Below, piece after piece: positions 15,961 through 27,119 of a stretch of 36,891 nt of DNA. The position numbers were made by a program, and so were the translations under genes. Below the pieces are notes generated by a model that saw only the letters and a list, made by a program, of their open reading frames with translations, was not told the origin of the DNA and made no database searches. The first letter of the stretch is position 1. Every line of letters begins with the position of its first letter. The stretch spans positions 1-36,891 of the forward strand of contig QCPB01000013.1 of assembly GCA_003209795.1 (NCBI GenBank), read 5' to 3'. The stretch is from Prochlorococcus sp. AG-436-C05. GTDB taxonomy: Bacteria; Cyanobacteriota; Cyanobacteriia; PCC-6307; Cyanobiaceae.

Positions 15961-16042
15961 GGGTCGGTGCCCGAGTGGTTAAAGGGGGCGGACTGTAAAT
16001 CCGCTGGCTCTGCCTACGTTGGTTCAAATCCAACCCGGCCCA
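15961..16042 (+). tRNA. trnY: tRNA-Tyr (anticodon GTA)
   Basis: The acceptor stem pairs GGGTCGG with CCGGCCC (one G-U). The anticodon stem-loop is GCGGA-CTGTAAA-TCCGC with anticodon GTA. A long variable arm (class II) and T-arm GTTGG-TTCAAAT-CCAAC follow. The 3' CCA is not encoded beyond the discriminator A. G34 makes it a queuosine substrate, and A36-A37 suits the MiaA/MiaB/MiaE modification, both encoded in this window in part. Confidence 0.97.
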
Positions 16043-16052
16043 CTTTAATATT

Positions 16053-16124
<72 letters not shown>

Positions 16125-16396
16125 CTTGCTAAGGGTATTGATAACCAAGGGATTTTAATTATCGCCAGAATAAATCGATGAGAATATATAAATAGGATTA
16201 AGAGTCTAATTTTTGTTTCTGAATCTAAATATCTAGAGGTGCATTAAATAGAAGATAACTCTAAAATTCTAAAAGCAATAAAATCTATCTGGATAACTTG
16301 TTAATTGTTATAAATATGAACCCAACTTATTCAAATCTTGCATTTTTCTTTATATTTAAGTAAGAATATACAAACCATTAGAAACTATATTTTTTA

Positions 16397-19300
16397 ATGC
16401 CTGAAGCTAATAGTCGTAAATATTTAAGATATAAAACGGCCGAGTTAATAGAGGCTGGAGAAACTTTTCTAAAGGAAAATAATATTAAAGAACTTAAAGA
16501 AATTGAATATGAAATTAATTTTAGAAAAAGACCATATACTGCAAGAATGTTGGTAGATATTAAAAAAAAAATAAGTTTATTTTTAGAAAATAATACTAAA
16601 GCAAATAAAATCACTACCAAGAGCTCAACTAATAATGAAATTATTAATTTAGAAGATGATTCTCAAGAAAATATTCTTCCAATAAAAGATGAAATTGAAT
16701 TAAATAATAATTATTCATCAAATGAAAGAAAATCCAAAGAAGCGGAATTAAAAGAAAAAGATAAGAATGAACTTAATAATGAATTTGAGGACGAAAATTT
16801 AAAACTTACTTCAATAGATTTATTAATTCCAGAGGGTTTTAATTCAATCAAAGAATATTTACAAAACAAGTTGGAGAATACAAAATCTTCCGAGGAATCT
16901 GATTATAAAGAAAAAGAAATATCTGACTTTAAAACTACAGAAAATAAAAAAAATATTTTAAAAAGATTTGAGTATTGGGCAGAACAATTAGTTGATTTAA
17001 CAGGAAAAAATGATTTGATTTGTTTTAGACAGACTAAGAACTCTTCTTATATTCCTTCTGAGGAAATTGTTCAGTCTCTTTTAAGTGGAAATTCTATAAG
17101 TGTATCTGAGTTAGAAGAACTTGAAGCAGAAGGGAATATTAAGGGTTCAGTAAAAGATGCGATTGAAAATTTTGATCAGTTTGGAATAGAAGTTTTTAGC
17201 TTGATATCAGGTTTTGCTATTTGGGAATCCGATCTTATTAATAATGCCTATTCTCCATTACTTTATTACAAATTATCTATTAATAATCCAAAGGAAAGAA
17301 GAATAAAAAATATCACATTCTCAATTAAAAATAATGAGCCTGAAGTTAATCCCGCCTTAATTCTTTATCTTAAAAGAAAGATGGGTGAGGAAATTAACGA
17401 AGACTTATTGAAGTTAGCACAAGTTGAAGGAGAGAAAATGGTAAGAGCTTATTTATTAGAAGAAATATCAGATGAATTGCAATTCCGGATTGAAGATGGT
17501 TATGCGATGAAAAATCTAAGATATTTAAAATTTCCCATGGTCAAGGATCTTTTATCAGCTGGAGATGCATTAATGAATAATATCCTAATTAGAGCTTTAA
17601 CAGGAGATGAAAAATCAATAAGAGGATTAAGAGATGATGTCAAAGAAATTGACATATCAGAACCAGACTATATTTCTCCAGAGAATGAATTTCTAGTATT
17701 AGATGCAGATTCAAGTCAACAATTTGCTATTAATGCAGCTTTAGAAGGACAGAATCTTGTAATAGAAGGGCCTCCTGGAACAGGTAAAAGTCAAACTATT
17801 ACAAACTTAATTTCAAGTTTTATAGCGCAAGGTAAGAGTGTTCTTTTTGTAGCAGAAAAAAGACCTGCAATTGATGCAGTAAAGAAAAGAATTAACAAGG
17901 TTGGATTAGAAGATTATTTTCTTGATCTGCATTCAATAGACTCCTTTATAAAAAAGCCTGCTGAATCATTTAGGAATCAATTTGAATTCATAACTGAATA
18001 TATAGAGAAAGATGTACTTCAAAATAATGATTTAACGAGATCAAGGGATATTCTGGTCTCAAGATTTGATGCTATGAAAGACGATAATAATATTTGGAAT
18101 ACAACTTATAAAGATGTTCTTAATTTAGCTATCGAAGCAAAGAAAGATAATGATTATGCTTATAGAATTGATGAAAATGAAATAGATAATCTAAATCCAA
18201 AGGTATTAAAAAATTTAGAAAATTTGTTATCTGAACTTTCAAGATATTCAATGAATATATTTGCAAGTCTTGCATTCCCCATGAGGAAATCATTTCTTGA
18301 ATCAAAAATTAAGACTCCTAATCATATTCAACAGATAATTAGTTCGATAGATAATATTAAAAAACATCTTATAAAAGTTGATGGATGGATATCTTTTCAG
18401 GAAAATTGTGATATTAATTACAAAGATTCATTAGAAAAAATTTATCAACTAGAAAGTTCTATAACCGAAGTATTAGCAAACGAAATATTAGATTTAAGTA
18501 AAGATTATTTCCTTGAGAAGGAAAAATTAGATTATCTAAAATTAACTTTTAATAAAAATATAATCTTCAGATGGTATTCATATTTAAGAGATAAAGAATA
18601 CAAAAATTATTTATCCATATTTAAAAAAATTATAAATAAAGGGCAACCTAAAAACTATGAAAATATTTTAAAAGGTTTAAATATTTTAGAAAGCAAGAAA
18701 ATTCTTGATCTAAGAAAAATAAAAATAATTAATTTTGAGGCTGATATTTTTAAGGAAATAAATACTTTATTTAATAATTTAAATGTCCTTAATCAATTTA
18801 TTGACGAGGAATTAGATGAGAAATCTAATATTGAAAAATTGAAGAAAACGATTTCGATTTTACTTAGACATAGAGATATACTTCCAAATATTATTAAAGT
18901 CAATGAATTGTTAAATAGCCTATTGAATTTTGGTTTATCAGAAAATGGTCTATTTGAGGAAATATTAATTGACTTTGAAAATAATATAGATGACAAAAAA
19001 ATATTTAAGAGAACTTCATTAGCTTGGTGTGAATCAGTAGAAGAATTAATGAGAATTAATAATCCTGAAATTGCTTCTTTTGAGAGAGATTATCTAGATG
19101 ATGTAGTTGAAGAATTTAGAGAAAATGATCAAAAACATATAGAAAATTCGTTTAAAAGAATAAGTACAATTTTGAATAATAATGCTTCAAAGGCCTTAAA
19201 TGATTACCCAAATGAGGCACAAATTTTAAGACAGGAATTGTCAAGGTCAAGAAAATTTAAACCTGCAAGGGAATTATTTGAAAAAGTTTCTAATTTTGCA

Positions 19301-20638
19301 AAAAAACTCAAACCTTGTTGGGCAATGAGTCCTTTATTAGTTTCTAAAGTGATGCCATCTAATGAACCTTTTTTTGATGTCGTTATTTTCGATGAGGCCA
19401 GCCAAATAGTTCCTCACGATGCAATAACTTCAATACTTAGAGGTAAGCAGACAATAGTTGCAGGAGATTCTAAGCAATTATCACCAACCTCAACTGCATT
19501 TTTTTCATCTAGTGGAGATAGTGATCAAGGCAATGATTTTAATCATGACGAGTTTAGTGCTGCTGATGAAACTGAGTCACTATTAGAAGCAGTTAAACAA
19601 GCTTTACCTCCAGTTTATGGAACAAAAACTCTCTTGTGGCATTATCGATCCGAAGATGAAAGACTAATATCTTTTTCTAATTGCCACCCAGAACTTTATA
19701 ATAAAAAACTTATAACAGCTCCATCAGTAACATCTGCTCCACCTTTTAAATACCATTTATTAACTGGTGAATTCAAAGAAATCAGTGGAGTTTCTCCTGA
19801 GGCTGAATGTAGAAAAACTATCGAATTGGTTATTAATAATTTAAGAAATAAGTCCGAAGAAAGTGTTGCTGTAATAGCATTTGGGATAGAACATGCTAGA
19901 AGGTTAAAAAATGAATTCTCTAAACAAGTAGGAGAAGAGAATGATTTAGTTGATTACCCAGAAGATAGACCTGAAGAAAAATTCATTATTAGACATTTAG
20001 AAAATATTCAAGGAGATGAGAGAGATGTTATTTTCTTATCTACTGGTTATGGTCCAAAAAGTCAAAATAGCTTGCGACAATTTTTTGGTCCTTTAAATTA
20101 TGATAACCCTAAATTATTTGGTCTAAGAAGATTAAATGTAGCAATAACAAGAGCCAGAAAAAGAGTAGAAGTTATTTCTACAATTGATCCATATAAATAT
20201 GACGATAATCAATTAGGTCAACAAGTTAGTAAAAAAGCTTTTATCCAATACTTGAGATACGTAAAAAGTGAAGGATCAGATTTAGGGGATTTGTCAATAA
20301 ATCAAGTCCCTATGAATCCATTTGAGCAAGATATTTATGATTCTTTAGTAGAAAGAGGAATTGGATTAGTTCCTCAATATGGAGTTTCTGGTTACAGATT
20401 GGATTTTGCAGTGCAACATCCCGAAGAAAAAGGAAGATATGTATTAGCTTTAGAGGCAGATGGTGCATCCTATCATTCTTCCGAAACAGCTAGAGATAGA
20501 GATAGAATTAGACAATCACACTTGGCAAAACTTGGATGGAAATTTCATAGGATATGGTCCCAAAGATGGTTCAAAAATAAAGAAGAAGAAATTGAAATTG
20601 CTTTAATAGCTATTAAACAAGCAATTAAATACTTTTAG
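16397..20638 (+). CDS. DUF4011-like / SF1 helicase / MTES_1575 (Vsr-like) nuclease fusion
   Basis: 1413 residues. A low-complexity, charged N-terminal stretch runs to about 185. A DUF4011-like start (FEYWAEQLVDLTGKNDL, from 191) follows. The SF1 helicase core is split: Walker A GPPGTGKS 458-465, a long helical insertion about 520-960, Walker B with D999-E1000 (VIFDEASQ), motif III GDSKQL 1023-1028, HYRS 1082-1085, GDERDVIFLS, and motif VI NVAITRAR 1247-1254. The C-terminus is a PD-(D/E)XK-type nuclease: RLDFAV with D1336, ALEADGASYH with E1353 and D1355, then RDRDRIRQ and GWKFHRIWSQRWF. All motifs are intact, so it should be an ATP-driven nuclease acting on DNA or RNA. Similar architectures include the phage-defence gene reported as hhe. 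No partner gene adjoins it. The ATG lacks a clear Shine-Dalgarno sequence. Confidence 0.88.
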   Translation: MPEANSRKYLRYKTAELIEAGETFLKENNIKELKEIEYEINFRKRPYTARMLVDIKKKISLFLENNTKANKITTKSSTNNEIINLEDDSQENILPIKDEIELNNNYSSNERKSKEAELKEKDKNELNNEFEDENLKLTSIDLLIPEGFNSIKEYLQNKLENTKSSEESDYKEKEISDFKTTENKKNILKRFEYWAEQLVDLTGKNDLICFRQTKNSSYIPSEEIVQSLLSGNSISVSELEELEAEGNIKGSVKDAIENFDQFGIEVFSLISGFAIWESDLINNAYSPLLYYKLSINNPKERRIKNITFSIKNNEPEVNPALILYLKRKMGEEINEDLLKLAQVEGEKMVRAYLLEEISDELQFRIEDGYAMKNLRYLKFPMVKDLLSAGDALMNNILIRALTGDEKSIRGLRDDVKEIDISEPDYISPENEFLVLDADSSQQFAINAALEGQNLVIEGPPGTGKSQTITNLISSFIAQGKSVLFVAEKRPAIDAVKKRINKVGLEDYFLDLHSIDSFIKKPAESFRNQFEFITEYIEKDVLQNNDLTRSRDILVSRFDAMKDDNNIWNTTYKDVLNLAIEAKKDNDYAYRIDENEIDNLNPKVLKNLENLLSELSRYSMNIFASLAFPMRKSFLESKIKTPNHIQQIISSIDNIKKHLIKVDGWISFQENCDINYKDSLEKIYQLESSITEVLANEILDLSKDYFLEKEKLDYLKLTFNKNIIFRWYSYLRDKEYKNYLSIFKKIINKGQPKNYENILKGLNILESKKILDLRKIKIINFEADIFKEINTLFNNLNVLNQFIDEELDEKSNIEKLKKTISILLRHRDILPNIIKVNELLNSLLNFGLSENGLFEEILIDFENNIDDKKIFKRTSLAWCESVEELMRINNPEIASFERDYLDDVVEEFRENDQKHIENSFKRISTILNNNASKALNDYPNEAQILRQELSRSRKFKPARELFEKVSNFAKKLKPCWAMSPLLVSKVMPSNEPFFDVVIFDEASQIVPHDAITSILRGKQTIVAGDSKQLSPTSTAFFSSSGDSDQGNDFNHDEFSAADETESLLEAVKQALPPVYGTKTLLWHYRSEDERLISFSNCHPELYNKKLITAPSVTSAPPFKYHLLTGEFKEISGVSPEAECRKTIELVINNLRNKSEESVAVIAFGIEHARRLKNEFSKQVGEENDLVDYPEDRPEEKFIIRHLENIQGDERDVIFLSTGYGPKSQNSLRQFFGPLNYDNPKLFGLRRLNVAITRARKRVEVISTIDPYKYDDNQLGQQVSKKAFIQYLRYVKSEGSDLGDLSINQVPMNPFEQDIYDSLVERGIGLVPQYGVSGYRLDFAVQHPEEKGRYVLALEADGASYHSSETARDRDRIRQSHLAKLGWKFHRIWSQRWFKNKEEEIEIALIAIKQAIKYF

Positions 20639-20901
20639 TAAATATAAATATTTTTCCTAAAAAATTTATGGTCTTCTTTTAAAGAATATCTTTTAGCTTC
20701 CGAATTAAGTTTAAATTAAAAATATTCAATATCATTTGTCTTCCTGTAGCTCCTTCGAATTGTTTAAAAGCTTAATTTTGGCAAATAGATTCACTAAAGG
20801 TTATCGAATTTTTATAAACTTGATTATCAATAATTTATTCTTTCGATTCTTAATCACTTTTCTTTTAATTAAGATATATTTAACAACGATTATCTTTATT
20901 A

Positions 20902-21093
20902 ATGCCACTATCATCATACCGAATGCACAGAATATATCTTGCTGCGACTATGAATTATGGTCTAGGTTCAGATGATCCTGAAGAGTTGGCCTACTACAAT
21001 AGAATCAGAAAAGAGATTGAAGATATGAAAAAGGACCCAGTTAAAAAAGGGATACCCCTTAATTTGGATACCCCTGAAGGAATGGATAAATGA
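20902..21093 (+). CDS. Small conserved-looking acidic protein
   Basis: Not recognised. Up to 63 residues from ATG 20902, or 47 from ATG 20950. The C-terminal part (GLGSDDPEELAYYNRIR, then MKKDPVKKGIPLNLD) is charged, soluble and more GC-rich than the flanks, which favours real coding. A possible -10 (TATATT) lies near 20875. Its TGA overlaps the ATG of the next small gene (ATGA), so the two are probably co-translated. Confidence 0.5.
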   Translation: MPLSSYRMHRIYLAATMNYGLGSDDPEELAYYNRIRKEIEDMKKDPVKKGIPLNLDTPEGMDK

Positions 21094-21185
21094 ATCTCAA
21101 TACTTTTTTATTTATTGATGGAAGTCTGATGCTTATTGGTCTGCCTTTGCTGATGATTCTTAAAGGCAAAAAACAGACTCCCTGA
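21090..21185 (+). CDS. Small membrane peptide coupled to the upstream gene
   Basis: 31 codons, starting at an ATG that overlaps the previous TGA by 4 nt. One hydrophobic span (SLMLIGLPLLMILKG) is followed by a basic tail. It ends 4 nt before the convergent SIMPL-gene stop. Function unknown. The overlap and the hydrophobic pattern are the only support. Confidence 0.4.
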   Translation: MNLNTFLFIDGSLMLIGLPLLMILKGKKQTP

Positions 21186-21189
21186 GCTA

Positions 21190-21972
21190 CTACTTAACTG
21201 CAAAAGTCACTCCCATAACGGCAGTGATATCTTTCTTGATAGTAGTTGTATCGTAAGAACCCCAGCTACTTACTCTCGTAGAATTTGGAACTGTTATCTG
21301 GAAAACTCCAGTATTCACTTTCTTTAGACCCCCCACTTTAGAACCTGCCTGAAGAGCAATAGCCTCAGCTCTTATTCTTGCATCCTTTGCAGCCTTGGCG
21401 AGCATATCCACTCTTTTATCAGGAAGCCTGGAATATGTGTACTCGGGAGAGCTTGGTCTTACCAAAACACCTTCGCCAAGAAGTTCAGTTATCTTGCTAT
21501 GGGTTTTTTGAATTCGATAAACATCATTGCTCTGGATTTCAATTCTTTGATAGGTAATCCATTCCGTTCTGATGATCTCATTGGTCTTGGGATGCTTGGT
21601 TACATATTCTTTTATACTTGCCGGTCCAAGATAAACTTCTTGTTTGATACCATCCTCAATTCCATTGGCTTGAAGGAAATTCATAGTCTTTTTCATTGAC
21701 TCTTTATGCTTATTAAATGAGTCAATCTGAGTCTTTCCTGTAGCCCTCACTTGAACGGACCATTTAGCAATATCACTCTCAAAACTTTCAGTACTTGCAC
21801 CTGTAACAGTGATGGAATTCTCAACCATCCTGAATCCTCTCACAAGGACTGTTGAGGCGCCTATAAATCCTCCGAAAGATAATACGGCCATTGCGAAAAC
21901 AAGTGGCGGCGTGCGGCGTATAACACTCAATGAATCGCCTGGGAGTGAACTGAGTCTCTTAATAATTCTCAT
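21190..21972 (-). CDS. SIMPL-domain (DUF541) protein
   Basis: 260 residues. An N-terminal membrane anchor or uncleaved signal (LVFAMAVLSFGGFIGAS, about 24-40) is followed by a periplasmic SIMPL domain: SITVTGASTESFESDIAKWSV (in part ITVTGASTE), WITYQRIEIQS, and AKDARIRAEAIALQAGSKVGG, the signature C-terminal helix (in part ARIRAEAIALQAGSKVG). The family includes periplasmic proteins of unknown function and BP26-type oligomers. Its codons are richer in G and C than the surroundings. A 298-nt gap without a clear gene lies upstream. Confidence 0.87.
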   Translation of the reverse strand: MRIIKRLSSLPGDSLSVIRRTPPLVFAMAVLSFGGFIGASTVLVRGFRMVENSITVTGASTESFESDIAKWSVQVRATGKTQIDSFNKHKESMKKTMNFLQANGIEDGIKQEVYLGPASIKEYVTKHPKTNEIIRTEWITYQRIEIQSNDVYRIQKTHSKITELLGEGVLVRPSSPEYTYSRLPDKRVDMLAKAAKDARIRAEAIALQAGSKVGGLKKVNTGVFQITVPNSTRVSSWGSYDTTTIKKDITAVMGVTFAVK

Positions 21973-22206
21973 TGTCTATATGTATGTGTTTAGGAGCTTT
22001 TTAACAGCTGAACCGGAAGAAAAATTTTAGAAAATACCCGACTTTTAATCCTTCAGTTCTATCTTGCCATTAAATTAAACATTTAAGTTTGATGTGCCAA
22101 TTACAGAGTCGGTAACTTATATTGCCAAATCAAATAACGGTTCGCAAGAAGTATTTTTGTATTAATCAATTAGCCTGAAGAACAGGATAAATTCCACAAA
22201 CATTTC

Positions 22207-22275
22207 ATGGAGGGATTTTCAAGAAGATTTGGTATGAGACCACTTCAAAGGTGGAAGAATGGAGGAAGCAAATAA
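22207..22275 (+). CDS. Possible 22-residue basic peptide
   Basis: Open frame with Arg, Lys and Trp (FSRRFGMRPLQRWKNGG) in the otherwise empty stretch 21973-22320. There is no convincing ribosome binding site. It could be a true micropeptide, a remnant or chance; the balanced composition compared with the AT-rich surroundings is the only argument for it. Confidence 0.2.
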   Translation: MEGFSRRFGMRPLQRWKNGGSK

Positions 22276-22320
22276 ATGGGTAATAGAATTTTTTAAATTT
22301 AAAGATTCCTATAGATAAAC

Positions 22321-22698
22321 TTATGCCGAATAAGTACCATCACATTCTCTTTGGGCTGCAGCCAATAAAATTTCACTTAAAACCTTTTCAATCATGTATG
22401 CACTTTTTATCCCATTGCATTTTTGGTTGTTAATCGCCTTAAAATCATTTTTGAGACAATTAATATATTCACAACAACCGCATCTAATATCTATTTTCTT
22501 ACCTCTATAAACTTCCAAGGCTCTAGCAAAAATCCATTGCTGAACTGAAATATTTTCCCAGCCATCAAAATTAGACCACTCCTCAAAATCCTTATCAAGA
22601 ATATCTGTTAATCCTTCTACCTCTAGTAAATATGTTAATAGAGCTTCTTTTCTTGATTCCTCTTTCATGCCGATTGTTTTTATAGAATCTTCTTTCAT
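22321..22698 (-). CDS. Unknown protein with a cysteine cluster
   Basis: 125 residues from ATG 22698; the frame is also open from TTG 22716. It is helical and acidic. A basic/Cys segment, IDIRCGCCEYINC (C-x-C-C-x4-C), is followed by NNQKCNG and a final CDG, which could bind a metal. The central part (WENISVQQWIFARALEVYRG) looks well conserved in style. No family was recognised. It stands alone, with a 688-nt AT-rich gap upstream. Confidence 0.6.
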   Translation of the reverse strand: MKEDSIKTIGMKEESRKEALLTYLLEVEGLTDILDKDFEEWSNFDGWENISVQQWIFARALEVYRGKKIDIRCGCCEYINCLKNDFKAINNQKCNGIKSAYMIEKVLSEILLAAAQRECDGTYSA

Positions 22699-22776
22699 TT
22701 CTGATAAATTGAGCAATTTATTCTATAATCTATTAATAAATTTTTAATAAGAATCAACTATAAAAAATTCTTTTCC

Positions 22777-22823
22777 AATTAAAAAAAATAAGAATTAATT
22801 AAAAAAAATAAGAATTAATTAAA
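22777..22823. repeat. 20-bp tandem repeat
   Basis: AAAAAAAATAAGAATTAATT occurs twice without a mismatch at 22781-22800 and 22801-22820. The periodicity extends a few bases each side, about 2.3 copies in total. It lies in non-coding DNA upstream of the cysteine-cluster gene. Confidence 0.9.
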
Positions 22824-22833
22824 TCAATAAAAA

Positions 22834-22899
22834 TTACAATTCTAATCTTTTAGAAGATTTAACTAATTTTTTATAAAGGTCTTCAGAGATAGGTTGCAT
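22834..22899 (-). CDS. Possible 21-residue peptide
   Basis: Minus-strand ATG 22899 to TAA 22834, with a basic helical sequence (SEDLYKKLVKSSKRLEL). It lies inside the gap 22699-23404, which is otherwise extremely AT-rich. Coding is uncertain; it could also be the end of a lost gene. Confidence 0.22.
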   Translation of the reverse strand: MQPISEDLYKKLVKSSKRLEL

Positions 22900-23066
22900 A
22901 ACTTTAGAATAACTTTTTTTGAATTACTTACTTTTAACTTTTTTTTACACCTCAAACTATGCGAATAATTACCTAAATTTATTTAAAAACTATTTAGAAT
23001 TTATAAATCTATTCTATAGATAAATTATCTTCAAAGTCGATCTAGATATATTTATATTTTCAACAA

Positions 23067-23210
23067 TTAAGCACAAATAACTGATAAATCTACAAAGTTC
23101 TTATCTTCGTCAGCTAATTCAGTAATAATCCTATTAAGCCATTCAGAGGTGCTTTCGCAGTAACCAACATTTAATATAGTTTTTTGTTTATTTGTTCCTT
23201 CTTTAAGCAT
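23067..23210 (-). CDS. Small unknown protein, 47 aa
   Basis: ATG 23210 to TAA 23067. The amino-acid use is balanced (ILNVGYCESTSEWLNRI, ELADEDKNFVDLSVICA), unlike random AT-rich DNA, so it is probably coding. It has two cysteines, no membrane span and no visible Shine-Dalgarno sequence. It lies 195 nt downstream of thiD on the same strand. The rest of the 22699-23404 gap shows nothing I can name. Confidence 0.5.
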   Translation of the reverse strand: MLKEGTNKQKTILNVGYCESTSEWLNRIITELADEDKNFVDLSVICA

Positions 23211-23404
23211 AACAATAGTCTTTTTTTATAAATTAGTCTTTAAAAAATAAAAGGGAATGAGTCTTAATTACTATCGATTAAAAAAATTATTATTTAATAA
23301 AAATTTAAAAACTTGTCCTAACAATACAAAATAATACTATTGCAAATCAATTTTATTTTTTAAACCTCATGAGGATATTGCTTCTAGTTCTTATTTTTTA
23401 AATT

Positions 23405-24187
23405 TTATTGATAATGTCCTAGAGGTCCTGGTCCAGATCCAATTTTATAAGATTTTTCCAGGGACTTTACAATAAATAATTTTGACTTTTGTATAGAGTC
23501 TATCAACTCGAAACCTAATGCCCTATAGCTACAAATTGCAGCACTTAATGTGCATCCACTTCCATGTGTATTTTGGGTATTAACAAACTTATTAAAAAAC
23601 CAATCTTTTCTGCCATTTGCATCAAGAAAGAAATCTCTACCTTTCATCCCCTCCAAACCGCCACCTTTTATTAATACGGCTTTAGCTCCTAGTCCAATAA
23701 TTTTCTTTGCAGCTTTCTCGATATCTTCTTTATTATTAATTTTCATATTAGATAATAGATTTGCTTCAAAAATATTTGGAGTTACCAACTCTGCAATTGG
23801 CAAAAGTAATTTTTTATAGGCATTAATTGCAGAATCTTCAAGCAATTTAGAACCAGTTCTAGTTACCATTACTGGGTCAATTATTTTAGGAATAGGATAA
23901 TTTCTTAACCTTATAGCGGTATCAATAATGATCCTTTCATTAAGTAACATGCCAGTTTTTAAAGCATTAATAGTAAAATCATCTACTAAAGTATCCATCT
24001 GACTTAATAAGGTATTACTATTTACTTCCTCTACACATTTCACCTCAATACTATTTTGAGCTGTAATACATGTAATTACAGAACATCCATGTACTTTAAG
24101 TGCCATAAAGGTTCTAAGATCAGCCTGAATTCCGGCACCTCCACCAGAGTCACTACCTCCTATTGAAAGTGCAATTTTTGAATACAT
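23405..24187 (-). CDS. thiD: Hydroxymethylpyrimidine/phosphomethylpyrimidine kinase
   Basis: Phosphorylates HMP to HMP-P and then HMP-PP for thiamine assembly. Ribokinase-fold signatures are the N-terminal SIGGSDSGGGAGIQADLRTF, CVEEV, DPVMVTRTGSKLL and the anion-hole motif NTHGSGCTLSAAI near the C-terminus. 260 aa is typical and there is no ThiE fusion. It is 41 nt downstream of tenA on the same strand, a classic salvage pairing. Confidence 0.95.
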   Translation of the reverse strand: MYSKIALSIGGSDSGGGAGIQADLRTFMALKVHGCSVITCITAQNSIEVKCVEEVNSNTLLSQMDTLVDDFTINALKTGMLLNERIIIDTAIRLRNYPIPKIIDPVMVTRTGSKLLEDSAINAYKKLLLPIAELVTPNIFEANLLSNMKINNKEDIEKAAKKIIGLGAKAVLIKGGGLEGMKGRDFFLDANGRKDWFFNKFVNTQNTHGSGCTLSAAICSYRALGFELIDSIQKSKLFIVKSLEKSYKIGSGPGPLGHYQ

Positions 24188-24852: not shown

Positions 24853-24960
24853 TTTATTATTATTTTAAATAGCTAAACAAATTATTTAATATTATTATCT
24901 TATAAAAAATAAGATTTCTTTAAAAGGAAATCTCAATTAAATCAATTATTATTAGTAATT

Positions 24961-25134
24961 ATGTCTGATAGATTTGAATGGGATGATACCAATAGTTCAG
25001 GTATTTGGTGGAGTACAAATGTAAGCATTCGAGATGAATGTATTTTACTTAAAGAAGATACTGAATGTGATGACTCTGATATTGTTCAATTACTTAGAAG
25101 TATTGCACAAAATATTGAAGATAACGGACTATAA
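24961..25134 (+). CDS. Small acidic protein, 57 aa
   Basis: ATG 24961 to TAA 25134. The sequence is acidic and Trp-rich at the start (FEWDDTNSSGIWWSTN), then DECILLKEDTECDDSD and a terminal helix. The composition argues for real coding. It lies divergent from tenA (108 nt) and convergent with proline iminopeptidase. No family recognised. Confidence 0.62.
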   Translation: MSDRFEWDDTNSSGIWWSTNVSIRDECILLKEDTECDDSDIVQLLRSIAQNIEDNGL

Positions 25135-25170
25135 TTTTATTTGCCAAATTATAAAATATTAAAAAGTATT

Positions 25171-26112: not shown

Positions 26113-26176
26113 TTTATAAATATAATTAATGATATTAAGAAATTATTTTTGTATACTTAATATATATAATTAAAAA

Positions 26177-26240
26177 AAAAGATAAAGTAAGACTATTTAA
26201 ATTGACACTAAAAAGGACTGCAATTACAGTCCTTTTTATA
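26177..26240 (+). ncRNA. Candidate short RNA ending at an intrinsic terminator
   Basis: A perfect -10 box TATAAT (26165-26170) is followed about 40 nt later by the strong hairpin at 26211-26236, with no open frame between. That spacing would yield an RNA of roughly 60 nt. The hairpin is bidirectional, so the RNA could also come from the other strand. There is no similarity to a known cyanobacterial sRNA that I can confirm. Confidence 0.3.
26211..26240 (+). terminator. Strong intrinsic terminator
   Basis: The stem AAAAGGACTG (26211-26220) pairs perfectly with CAGTCCTTTT (26227-26236) around a 6-nt loop CAATTA, and a further T follows. The symmetric A/T tracts let it act on both strands. It is not at the end of any protein gene: pip starts about 100 nt to the left on the minus strand. 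Confidence 0.85.
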
Positions 26241-26781
26241 ATTTGTGTATTTCCTACTTTCAATATTTTAAAAAACATCAAATAAAGTTCATTTACTCAT
26301 GAGCTTTAAGAATGTCGATTCGGGGATTATTCTCGATAATTTTAGTTCCTTATGTCGCCAGTAATTATAAAGCGAAGTCTTATCAGACTAATTGATTGAA
26401 CTTAGATTTTCGATTAATCCCATACTCAGGAATACGCTTCCTTTTCTTTGGAATTTGCTAAATTTCAGGCGGACTATCAATCATAAAAGATTGCCTCCGA
26501 ACTCAACACTTATAAGTTACTATTATTTCTATTTCCAGTAAATCCGTAAATATGCTGATTTACTTTTACCAAAATCTGTAAGAGGATTTTAATGATCCAT
26601 TGTTTAAAGCAATTATTATTTGAAAATAGCAAAGTGTGAGTTTAATCTGCAATTATTCTTATAATGGAATATATAAAGTTTAGTAAATCTTCTAAATAAC
26701 TAGATTCGATTAAACCTTTTAAATTTATTTAAATCACTATTCCTATAAAAATTGAATCAACAGAGAATTATTATTTAAATT
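26241..26781. other. Gene-free stretch with several hairpins
   Basis: No convincing open frame. From about 26290 to 26510 the base composition is more balanced than the flanks, and local stems occur: CGGGGATTATTCTCG, AGTCT-TATC-AGACT, AGGAA-TACGC-TTCCT followed by a T-rich run (about 26432-26452), and CAATC-ATAAAA-GATTG. This looks more like a structured RNA or a gene remnant than plain spacer. The final part (26540-26781) is AT-rich with nothing to report. Confidence 0.3.
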
Positions 26782-26877
26782 ATGGATTTCATCAAAAAAA
26801 ACAAAATTCTTACTTTTATGGCAATAATCGCATTACTATCATTTACTTTAGAAAAAGCAGGTGTAATTCATCCATAA
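26782..26877 (+). CDS. Small single-span membrane peptide, 31 aa
   Basis: ATG 26782 to TAA 26877: a basic N-terminus (MDFIKKNK), one hydrophobic helix (ILTFMAIIALLSFTL) and a short polar end. The type is common in Prochlorococcus, but the function is unknown. The 240 nt that follow up to the CPBP gene are AT-rich and empty. Confidence 0.5.
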   Translation: MDFIKKNKILTFMAIIALLSFTLEKAGVIHP

Positions 26878-27119
26878 AATACTTTAAAAATATCATCTAA
26901 CAAGTTTTATCTAATTTATTCATAACCATCATCTACTACTGCAACAAGTTAGTAAAGGATATAAAGCCTAGTAAAAAAGATAAGAAAAATCAAAACTTTT
27001 ATAAAGATTTGTCTCATCTCTTGAAAAATACAATTATGGTAAAAAGAAAAAGATAAAACTAATTCAATAACTATTTAAGATTTTAAGCGGCCAAGGAGGG
27101 TCAACTAACAATAAAAATA

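What the first reader, a model, noticed from the sequence alone, without database searches (positions are those of the whole stretch)
16397..20638. Lone 1413-residue helicase-nuclease directly behind a tRNA pair: candidate defence gene
Seen: intact SF1 motifs (Walker A K464, D999-E1000, GDSKQL, NVAITRAR), a DUF4011-like N-terminal segment and a C-terminal PD-(D/E)XK-type nuclease (D1336, E1353, D1355) of the MTES_1575/Vsr-like type, 272 nt after tRNA-Thr. Known: DUF4011-helicase-Vsr proteins include the single-gene phage-defence system named hhe, and tRNA genes are common insertion points for islands. Inferred: this is an accessory nuclease-helicase that may act against phage. What is unusual is the isolation (no methylase, integrase or partner), the very long helical insertion between helicase halves (about 520-960), and its presence in a streamlined genome.
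Basis: partly seen in the sequence, partly recalled or inferred. Interest (0 to 1): 0.75.

Follow-up and report, generated by a model that had tools for sequence, protein, structure and literature searches.

The report
Defence helicase-nuclease in tRNA hotspot
A large DNA- or RNA-cutting motor protein in a Prochlorococcus genome belongs to a known family of candidate anti-virus genes and sits in a spot behind a tRNA gene where mobile elements have repeatedly left such genes.

Summary
The 1413-aa ORF is real and the stated motifs are in place. It is a PDC-S37-like DUF4011/SF1-helicase/MTES_1575-nuclease (PADLOC PDC-S37 E 6e-210, Hhe 3e-114), below NCBIfam's cut-offs for Hhe and ProA. It is accessory: 20 of 266 same-genus genomes carry it or a relative, at several sites. 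Eight of those 20 lie in the trnT-thiD interval, a hotspot that in other strains holds a tyrosine recombinase about 112 nt behind trnT, trnT duplications, methylases, Mza-like genes and a type IIG enzyme. The 'isolation' is probably secondary: the 272-nt leader still aligns with the element's left end up to the old integrase start, where the frame stops. The 'very long insertion' is a family trait. New here: the first ~67 residues form a fast-evolving module also found on three Mokosh-like helicase proteins and lacking in two sister orthologues, so it is shuffled between two defence classes. Most likely function: a single-gene anti-phage or anti-mobile-element nuclease whose SF1B motor feeds nucleic acid to a C-terminal Vsr-like nuclease. 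Activity is inferred, not shown.

The parts
15961..16043 (+). tRNA-Tyr (gta)
   Evidence: ARAGORN
16053..16125 (+). tRNA-Thr (ggt), the anchor of the hotspot; copied whole or in part 10.5-17 kb downstream in 6 of 20 fetched genomes
16138..16267 (+). Scar of the trnT element's left end and integrase start (former GTG codon at 16239, third codon TAA)
   Evidence: Local alignment scores 57, 61, 45, 73 to the arms of G041, G042, G199, G104 against maxima of 40, 35, 36, 37 in 1000 shuffles each; best place in the window for 8 of 8 arms. Codons read by eye from the sequence; the script line printed them one base out of frame
16397..20638 (+). PDC-S37-like helicase-nuclease, 1413 aa
16397..16597 (+). 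N-terminal module, residues 1-67, also on three Mokosh-like helicase proteins
16598..16945 (+). Acidic linker (by eye), residues 68-183, among the fastest-evolving parts
   Evidence: sequence; dN/dS
16982..17365 (+). Degenerate DUF4011 region, about residues 196-323 (placed by offset from L098)
   Evidence: PF13195 in L098 residues 25-152; Walker A positions
17708..18031 (+). SF1 helicase motifs I-Ia, about residues 438-545
   Evidence: AAA_11; Foldseek Ighmbp2, Sen1, Dna2
18032..19186 (+). Helical insertion between motifs Ia and II, about residues 546-930 (low-confidence model)
19187..20296 (+). SF1 helicase motifs II-VI, about residues 931-1300
20321..20596 (+). MTES_1575 PD-(D/E)XK/Vsr-like nuclease, residues 1309-1400
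   Evidence: PF18741 E 3e-32; helix, three strands, helix, strand, helix in the model
20895..21187 (+). DNA conserved with a trnT site lacking the gene (G141), marking the approximate right edge of the variable insert
21190..21972 (-). SIMPL (DUF541) gene, right neighbour; lies between trnT and its copy in six relatives
23405..24187 (-). thiD-like kinase, conserved anchor on the far side of the hotspot

Best explanation
The gene is a PDC-S37-like single-gene defence candidate carried into the trnT hotspot by a tyrosine-recombinase (tycheposon-like) element whose integrase has since decayed. Shown by sequence: family, intact catalytic residues, patchy distribution, several locations, hotspot, integrase scar. 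Inferred: the Upf1/Dna2-like SF1B motor loads on exposed nucleic acid of an invader (replicating phage DNA, or its RNA), translocates 5' to 3' and delivers it to the C-terminal Vsr-like nuclease; the helical insertion and the DUF4011 region hold the nuclease in check or read the substrate; the variable N-terminal module tunes recruitment or regulation.
For: PDC-S37 E 5.7e-210 and Hhe E 2.6e-114; MTES_1575 E 3e-32. K464, D999, E1000, D1336, E1353, D1355 invariant in 12 of 12 and 15 of 15 selected homologues. In 20 of 266 genus genomes. Eight of the 20 lie in the trnT-thiD interval; G141 and G142 have an 87%-identical orthologue elsewhere, while behind their trnT lie only SIMPL after 540 nt (G141) or other cargo (G142). 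Integrase in 48 of 266 genomes; of the 33 of these with trnT coordinates listed, 29 have it close behind trnT (25 at 109-115 nt), 12 of the 29 broken or partial. 7 of 13 genomes chosen for contiguity, not for this gene, have a PADLOC-type gene within about 18 kb behind trnT. dN/dS 0.05-0.12 in helicase and nuclease in three comparisons with the window gene. Foldseek best hits Ighmbp2, Sen1, senataxin, Dna2.
Against: No phage assay. Scores are below NCBIfam's cut-offs for Hhe (511 vs 2000) and ProA (677 vs 1500). A DUF4011 gene is a core flanking gene in every P. aeruginosa isolate of one study (PMC10250203, passages), so the domain alone does not mean accessory defence. Only 2 of 50,697 phage records match. 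PADLOC models of methylases and helicases can also match non-defence proteins. In G192-G141 the nuclease dN/dS is 0.18, and in the near-identical pair G141-G142 it is 2.3 on very few changes. The structure model is of moderate quality (mean pLDDT 61, insertion mostly under 50) and Foldseek TM-scores are low (about 0.23 over the query).
Confidence: 0.7

Rival explanations
1. Accessory DNA-repair or recombination helicase-nuclease (Dna2/RecD-like) kept for stress, not for defence.
For: Foldseek finds Dna2 and Upf1-like helicases; strong purifying selection in the core.
Against: Found in 20 of 266 genomes at several locations; methylases, Mza-like and type IIG genes occupy the same site in other strains; best family matches are defence candidates.
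Confidence: 0.12
2. The protein acts mainly against rival mobile elements (plasmids, other trnT elements, satellites) and protects the island, phage being incidental.
For: 415 of 72,556 plasmid records have a match at E 1e-5 or better, none covering 80% of the query; the 15 listed cover 55-65%. Relatives lie beside the trnT integrase.
Confidence: 0.13
3. Selfish or decaying cargo without present function.
For: The integrase beside it has decayed to a scar.
Against: Open reading frame, invariant active sites, whole-gene dN/dS 0.18-0.21 in four pairs of window-type orthologues.
Confidence: 0.05

Closest known systems
PDC-S37 (PADLOC-DB candidate)
   Same: Best match, 698 bits; same order of DUF4011 region, SF1 helicase and MTES_1575 nuclease as its Prochlorococcus relatives
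   Different: Extra 183-residue N-terminus; shorter motif I-II insertion than the six distant Prochlorococcus relatives with both motifs; DUF4011 too diverged for its HMM
Hhe (NF042953, PADLOC Hhe)
   Same: 511 bits, best stretch residues 602-1402; named by NCBIfam as a DUF4011 anti-phage protein
   Different: Far below the equivalog cut-off of 2000 bits; profile is 1797 positions long against 1413 aa here
ProA (NF058533, anti-phage protein)
   Same: 677 bits, best stretch residues 782-1409
   Different: Below the cut-off of 1500; the one paper search on it listed nothing relevant
Mokosh (MkoA/MkoC)
   Same: SF1 Upf1-like helicase; three MkoA/MkoC-like proteins of the same family of cyanobacteria carry the same N-terminal module
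   Different: PLD domain (Pfam-scanned in the G174 protein only) instead of MTES_1575; P0001 itself matches MkoA weakly (E 5e-17)
Tycheposons
   Same: Cargo behind a tRNA with a tyrosine recombinase and tRNA duplications in relatives
   Different: In the window the recombinase is gone; the original description was not available, only passages citing it, which do not say whether tRNA-Thr is one of its seven tRNAs

Membership tests
PDC-S37-like / DUF4011-helicase-MTES_1575 proteins | SF1 helicase with intact motifs I, II, VI | tested here: met
PDC-S37-like / DUF4011-helicase-MTES_1575 proteins | C-terminal MTES_1575 nuclease above the curated cut-off | tested here: met
   110.9 bits vs cut-off 38.2
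PDC-S37-like / DUF4011-helicase-MTES_1575 proteins | N-terminal DUF4011 | tested here: inconclusive
   Not listed for P0001 at E up to 10; above cut-off in orthologue L098 (38.1 vs 22.2 bits)
PDC-S37-like / DUF4011-helicase-MTES_1575 proteins | Best defence-library match is PDC-S37 | tested here: met
   E 5.7e-210, (this library gives no curated cut-off)
Hhe | NCBIfam equivalog cut-off of 2000 bits | tested here: not met
   511 bits
ProA | NCBIfam equivalog cut-off of 1500 bits | tested here: not met
   677 bits
Hhe | Demonstrated phage restriction | not testable with these tools
   needs plating
Tycheposon-like element | Anchored behind a tRNA gene | tested here: met
Tycheposon-like element | Tyrosine recombinase present | tested here: not met
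   Only a scar in the window (best tblastn hit E 2.3, elsewhere; scar); present in relatives at the same site
Tycheposon-like element | Duplicated tRNA segment at the far end | tested here: not met
   None above shuffles in 20639-21189, 21973-23404, 24853-25170 or 26113-27119; present in 6 of 20 fetched genomes

The most novel reading that the evidence does not exclude
The ~67-residue N-terminal module with its acidic linker is a swappable sensor or adaptor that picocyanobacteria bolt onto different defence helicase-nucleases (PDC-S37-like with a Vsr-like nuclease, and Mokosh-like with a PLD domain), so that two defence classes share one trigger; its rapid evolution reflects conflict with cyanophage or with the trnT elements that carry it.
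Probability: 0.3. Interest if true: 0.7.

Novelty: new variant of a known kind. Interest (0 to 1): 0.5.

Why it matters
The trnT-thiD interval of Prochlorococcus reads as a defence hotspot, with stages from an intact integrase element to bare cargo with an integrase scar, and it gives a list of candidate cyanophage-resistance genes to test in a streamlined genome. The shared N-terminal module links two classes of defence helicase-nuclease and can be tested by swapping it between them in a laboratory host.

Tried and rejected
Rejected: a required partner. A 151-aa plus 355-aa pair (hydrophobic N-terminal segments, by eye) lies next to the gene or its distant relative in 8 genomes, and 9 of 16 genomes with the 355-aa gene also have an S37 relative (Fisher p 9e-8). 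But the pair also stands in 7 genomes without an S37 relative; 0 of 14 other loci checked, the window included, hold the 355-aa gene and 1 (G217) holds the 151-aa gene; the window's genome has a 54% copy of the 355-aa gene on another contig. Rejected: a trnT duplicate in the window stretches tested. Rejected: a readable integrase in the window. Led nowhere: the AlphaFold model of residues 1-440 (mean pLDDT 35); paper searches for PDC-S37 and ProA; the viral-contig scan with the single protein (none). G009, G049 and G018 could not be placed relative to the hotspot.

Paper searches (10 of 882 listed; 15 of 22 listed) showed no title or abstract start about this trnT hotspot; only listings were seen, and a paper outside the library is not excluded.

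Limits: genome-search figures rest on draft, partly incomplete genomes (6 of 87 at least 90% complete carry a relative). Pfam and PADLOC scans covered selected ORFs of the hotspot. In G039, G060, G209, G050 and G002 no large ORF lies between trnT and the thiD neighbourhood and none was scanned; three ORFs scanned in G120 gave no PADLOC hit. In one search, shorter matches of 12-18 nt to trnT or its 40-nt downstream flank in G060, G015, G209 and G050 were not counted as duplications. In one search the domain limits follow the numbering of the first gene of each pair, so they shift by a few residues in G192-G141 and G141-G142.
Full report
Observation. The protein carries an MTES_1575 nuclease (E 3e-32) and split AAA_11/AAA_12 helicase domains. 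In PADLOC the best family is PDC-S37 (E 5.7e-210), then Hhe (E 2.6e-114). NCBIfam gives ProA 677 bits (cut-off 1500) and Hhe 511 bits (cut-off 2000), so it is neither by those curated standards. DUF4011 is not listed for this protein but is for its relatives. That PDC-S stands for a single-gene phage-defence candidate is recalled, not from a call.

Organism. The four named contigs with an 83-87% identical gene are Prochlorococcus single-cell genomes: AG-363-P06, AG-436-O11, AG-402-K10, AG-409-A22 ('single-cell' is recalled from the names).

Anatomy. The motif I to motif II distance is 541 residues here, 541-543 in the close relatives with both motifs, and 903-933 in the six distant Prochlorococcus relatives with both motifs. 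Among viral-contig relatives it varies widely, from 255 in a weak 22%-identical one to over 900. The insertion is thus a family trait. In the AlphaFold model (984 residues, 15 sequences, mean pLDDT 61) much of the helicase and nuclease scores about 60-90 and the insertion is helical with pLDDT mostly under 50. Foldseek best hits are Ighmbp2, Sen1, senataxin, Dna2 and Upf1, with low TM-scores; that these are SF1B helicases moving 5' to 3' is recalled. The six catalytic residues are invariant in 12 of 12 and 15 of 15 selected sequences.

Distribution. With E at most 1e-20, 20 of 266 genus genomes have a match: 12 of a close group, the window's genome included (the other eleven at 44-87% identity), and 8 distant (31-34%). 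In an earlier search 18 of 99 relatives matched at E at most 0.001, weak helicase-only matches included. Of 72,556 plasmid records 415 match at E 1e-5 or better, none over 80% of the query; of the 15 listed, 13 are annotated DUF4011 or DUF3320. Of 50,697 phage records 2 match. By profile 37 IMG/VR loci match, 16 of them reaching past residue 1390 and so into the nuclease.

Locations. In the window and G192 the gene lies co-directional, about 270 nt behind trnT. In G181, G160 and G199 it lies convergent about 3 kb behind trnT, after the integrase (broken in G181) and two small genes. G299 shows the same order, with the gene split over two contig ends. In G104 a 34%-identical relative starts 1145 nt behind trnT, after a truncated integrase. 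In G217 a relative lies between thiD and SIMPL, the trnT end being on another contig. That is 8 of 20. G141, G142 and G264 share another site; G033, G057 and G251 a third; G003 and G276 a fourth; G236 shares right-flank genes with G141 and G142. G009, G049 and G018 were not placed.

The hotspot. I fetched trnT-downstream DNA of 20 genomes: 7 because they carry the gene or a relative, 13 for contiguity. Of the 13, 7 (G041, G042, G146, G208, G024, G015, G220) have at least one protein matching PADLOC at E at most 1e-10: PDC-M33A, type II methylase, MzaC, MzaE, type IIG, or MkoA-like. In G220 the far edge of the island was not reached. A 330-aa ORF about 112 nt behind trnT is a tyrosine recombinase (PF00589 E 6e-19; PHROG integrase E 2e-42). 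It occurs whole or in part in 48 of 266 genomes. Of the 33 of these with trnT coordinates listed, 29 have it close behind trnT, and 12 of these 29 are broken or partial; the other 15 were not placed this way. Copies of trnT of 41-74 nt (in G181 of 17 plus 23 nt) lie 10.5-17 kb downstream in 6 of the 20 genomes, and SIMPL lies between trnT and its copy in all six.

The scar. The 272 nt between trnT and the gene align from 16138 to 16267 with the element's left arm (scores 57, 61, 45 and 73 against G041, G042, G199 and G104; maxima of 1000 dinucleotide shuffles 40, 35, 36 and 37). For 8 of 8 arms tested this is the best place in the window on either strand; for G199 the margin is small (45 against 39). 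By eye, the integrase start GTG CAT is kept at 16239 and followed by TAA. A protein search finds no integrase in the window, and no trnT copy was found in the stretches tested. The simplest account is that an element delivered the gene and its integrase then decayed; a different element sharing the same left arm would also fit.

Selection. Between the window gene and G192, dN/dS is 0.18 overall, 0.05 in the nuclease, 0.10-0.12 in the helicase parts, 0.19 in the insertion, 0.56 in residues 1-67 and 0.50 in the linker; against G141 the values are 0.20, 0.08, 0.06-0.10, 0.33, 0.31 and 0.52; G142 is similar. G192-G141 gives 0.21 overall and 0.18 in the nuclease. The near-identical pair G141-G142 gives 0.40 overall and values above 1 for N-terminus, linker and nuclease, on very few changes (all).

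The N-terminal module. Residues 1-67 are found in 9 S37-like proteins, while G003 and G276 orthologues match only from residue 184 on. With the window sequence alone (74 aa) the G174 protein already matches at E 4.8e-7 in a genome without an S37 relative. A profile of 8 rows (one of them the G174 protein) matched 12 of 266 genus genomes and 3 of 338 class genomes at E at most 0.001, the window's own genome counted in both. Besides the S37-like carriers, G174, G254 and G540 have it at the start of 1138-1157-aa proteins. The G174 protein has AAA_11, AAA_12 and PLDc_2 domains; the other two are 52% and 41% identical to it; all three match MkoA and MkoC best in PADLOC. The hits in G269 (51-aa frame, E 1.9e-4) and G530 (337-aa frame, E 5.5e-4) are weak and not interpreted. 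The module's structure could not be predicted.

In print. Hhe and Mokosh are listed among defence systems with an SF1/SF2 helicase (PMC12278908, passage), and hhe was deleted as a candidate defence gene in E. coli ECOR17 (PMC9391042, passages). By its abstract as listed, Hachiman couples a sensor helicase to an effector nuclease (PMC12278908, search listing), a model for how such a pair can work. Tycheposons were seen only through passages of a paper on Methylophilaceae (PMC10872708).

Verdict. A member, in a new variant, of a known kind of candidate defence protein, at a tRNA-anchored defence hotspot.

Noticed in passing
L083:2472-4147; also L081, L082, L100, L101, L104, L105, L107, L111-L116, L118: A 151-aa plus 355-aa gene pair recurs as island cargo, often tail-to-tail with the S37-like gene and also without it; the pairs scanned (L083, L101) had no PHROG or PADLOC match, and the L083 pair no Pfam match. 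Role unknown.
   Followed up: partly
L167:4238-7654, L182:1163-4630, L183:1052-4525: Mokosh-like helicase proteins with the same N-terminal module as the window gene.
   Followed up: yes
L111:13237-14391 (G164), similar-length ORFs in L112 and L116: A SLFN_AlbA_2 protein of 384 aa with a 449-aa gene behind trnT: a further kind of cargo at this site (only the L111 protein was scanned).
   Followed up: no
L095:6156-11348 (G120): A 1730-aa ORF behind trnT with no PADLOC match at E 1e-10; unidentified cargo.
   Followed up: no
L099:4518-6242 and L098:13684-15429: Next to the S37-like gene in G003 and G276 lies a trypsin-TPR protein (scanned in L099 only) with matches to LmuA and RT-protease models: possibly a further defence gene.
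   Followed up: no
window 21190-21972: The SIMPL (DUF541) gene lies between trnT and its copy in six genomes and was not found in the fetched interval of G060, G209, G050 and G002, so it behaves as island cargo.
   Followed up: partly
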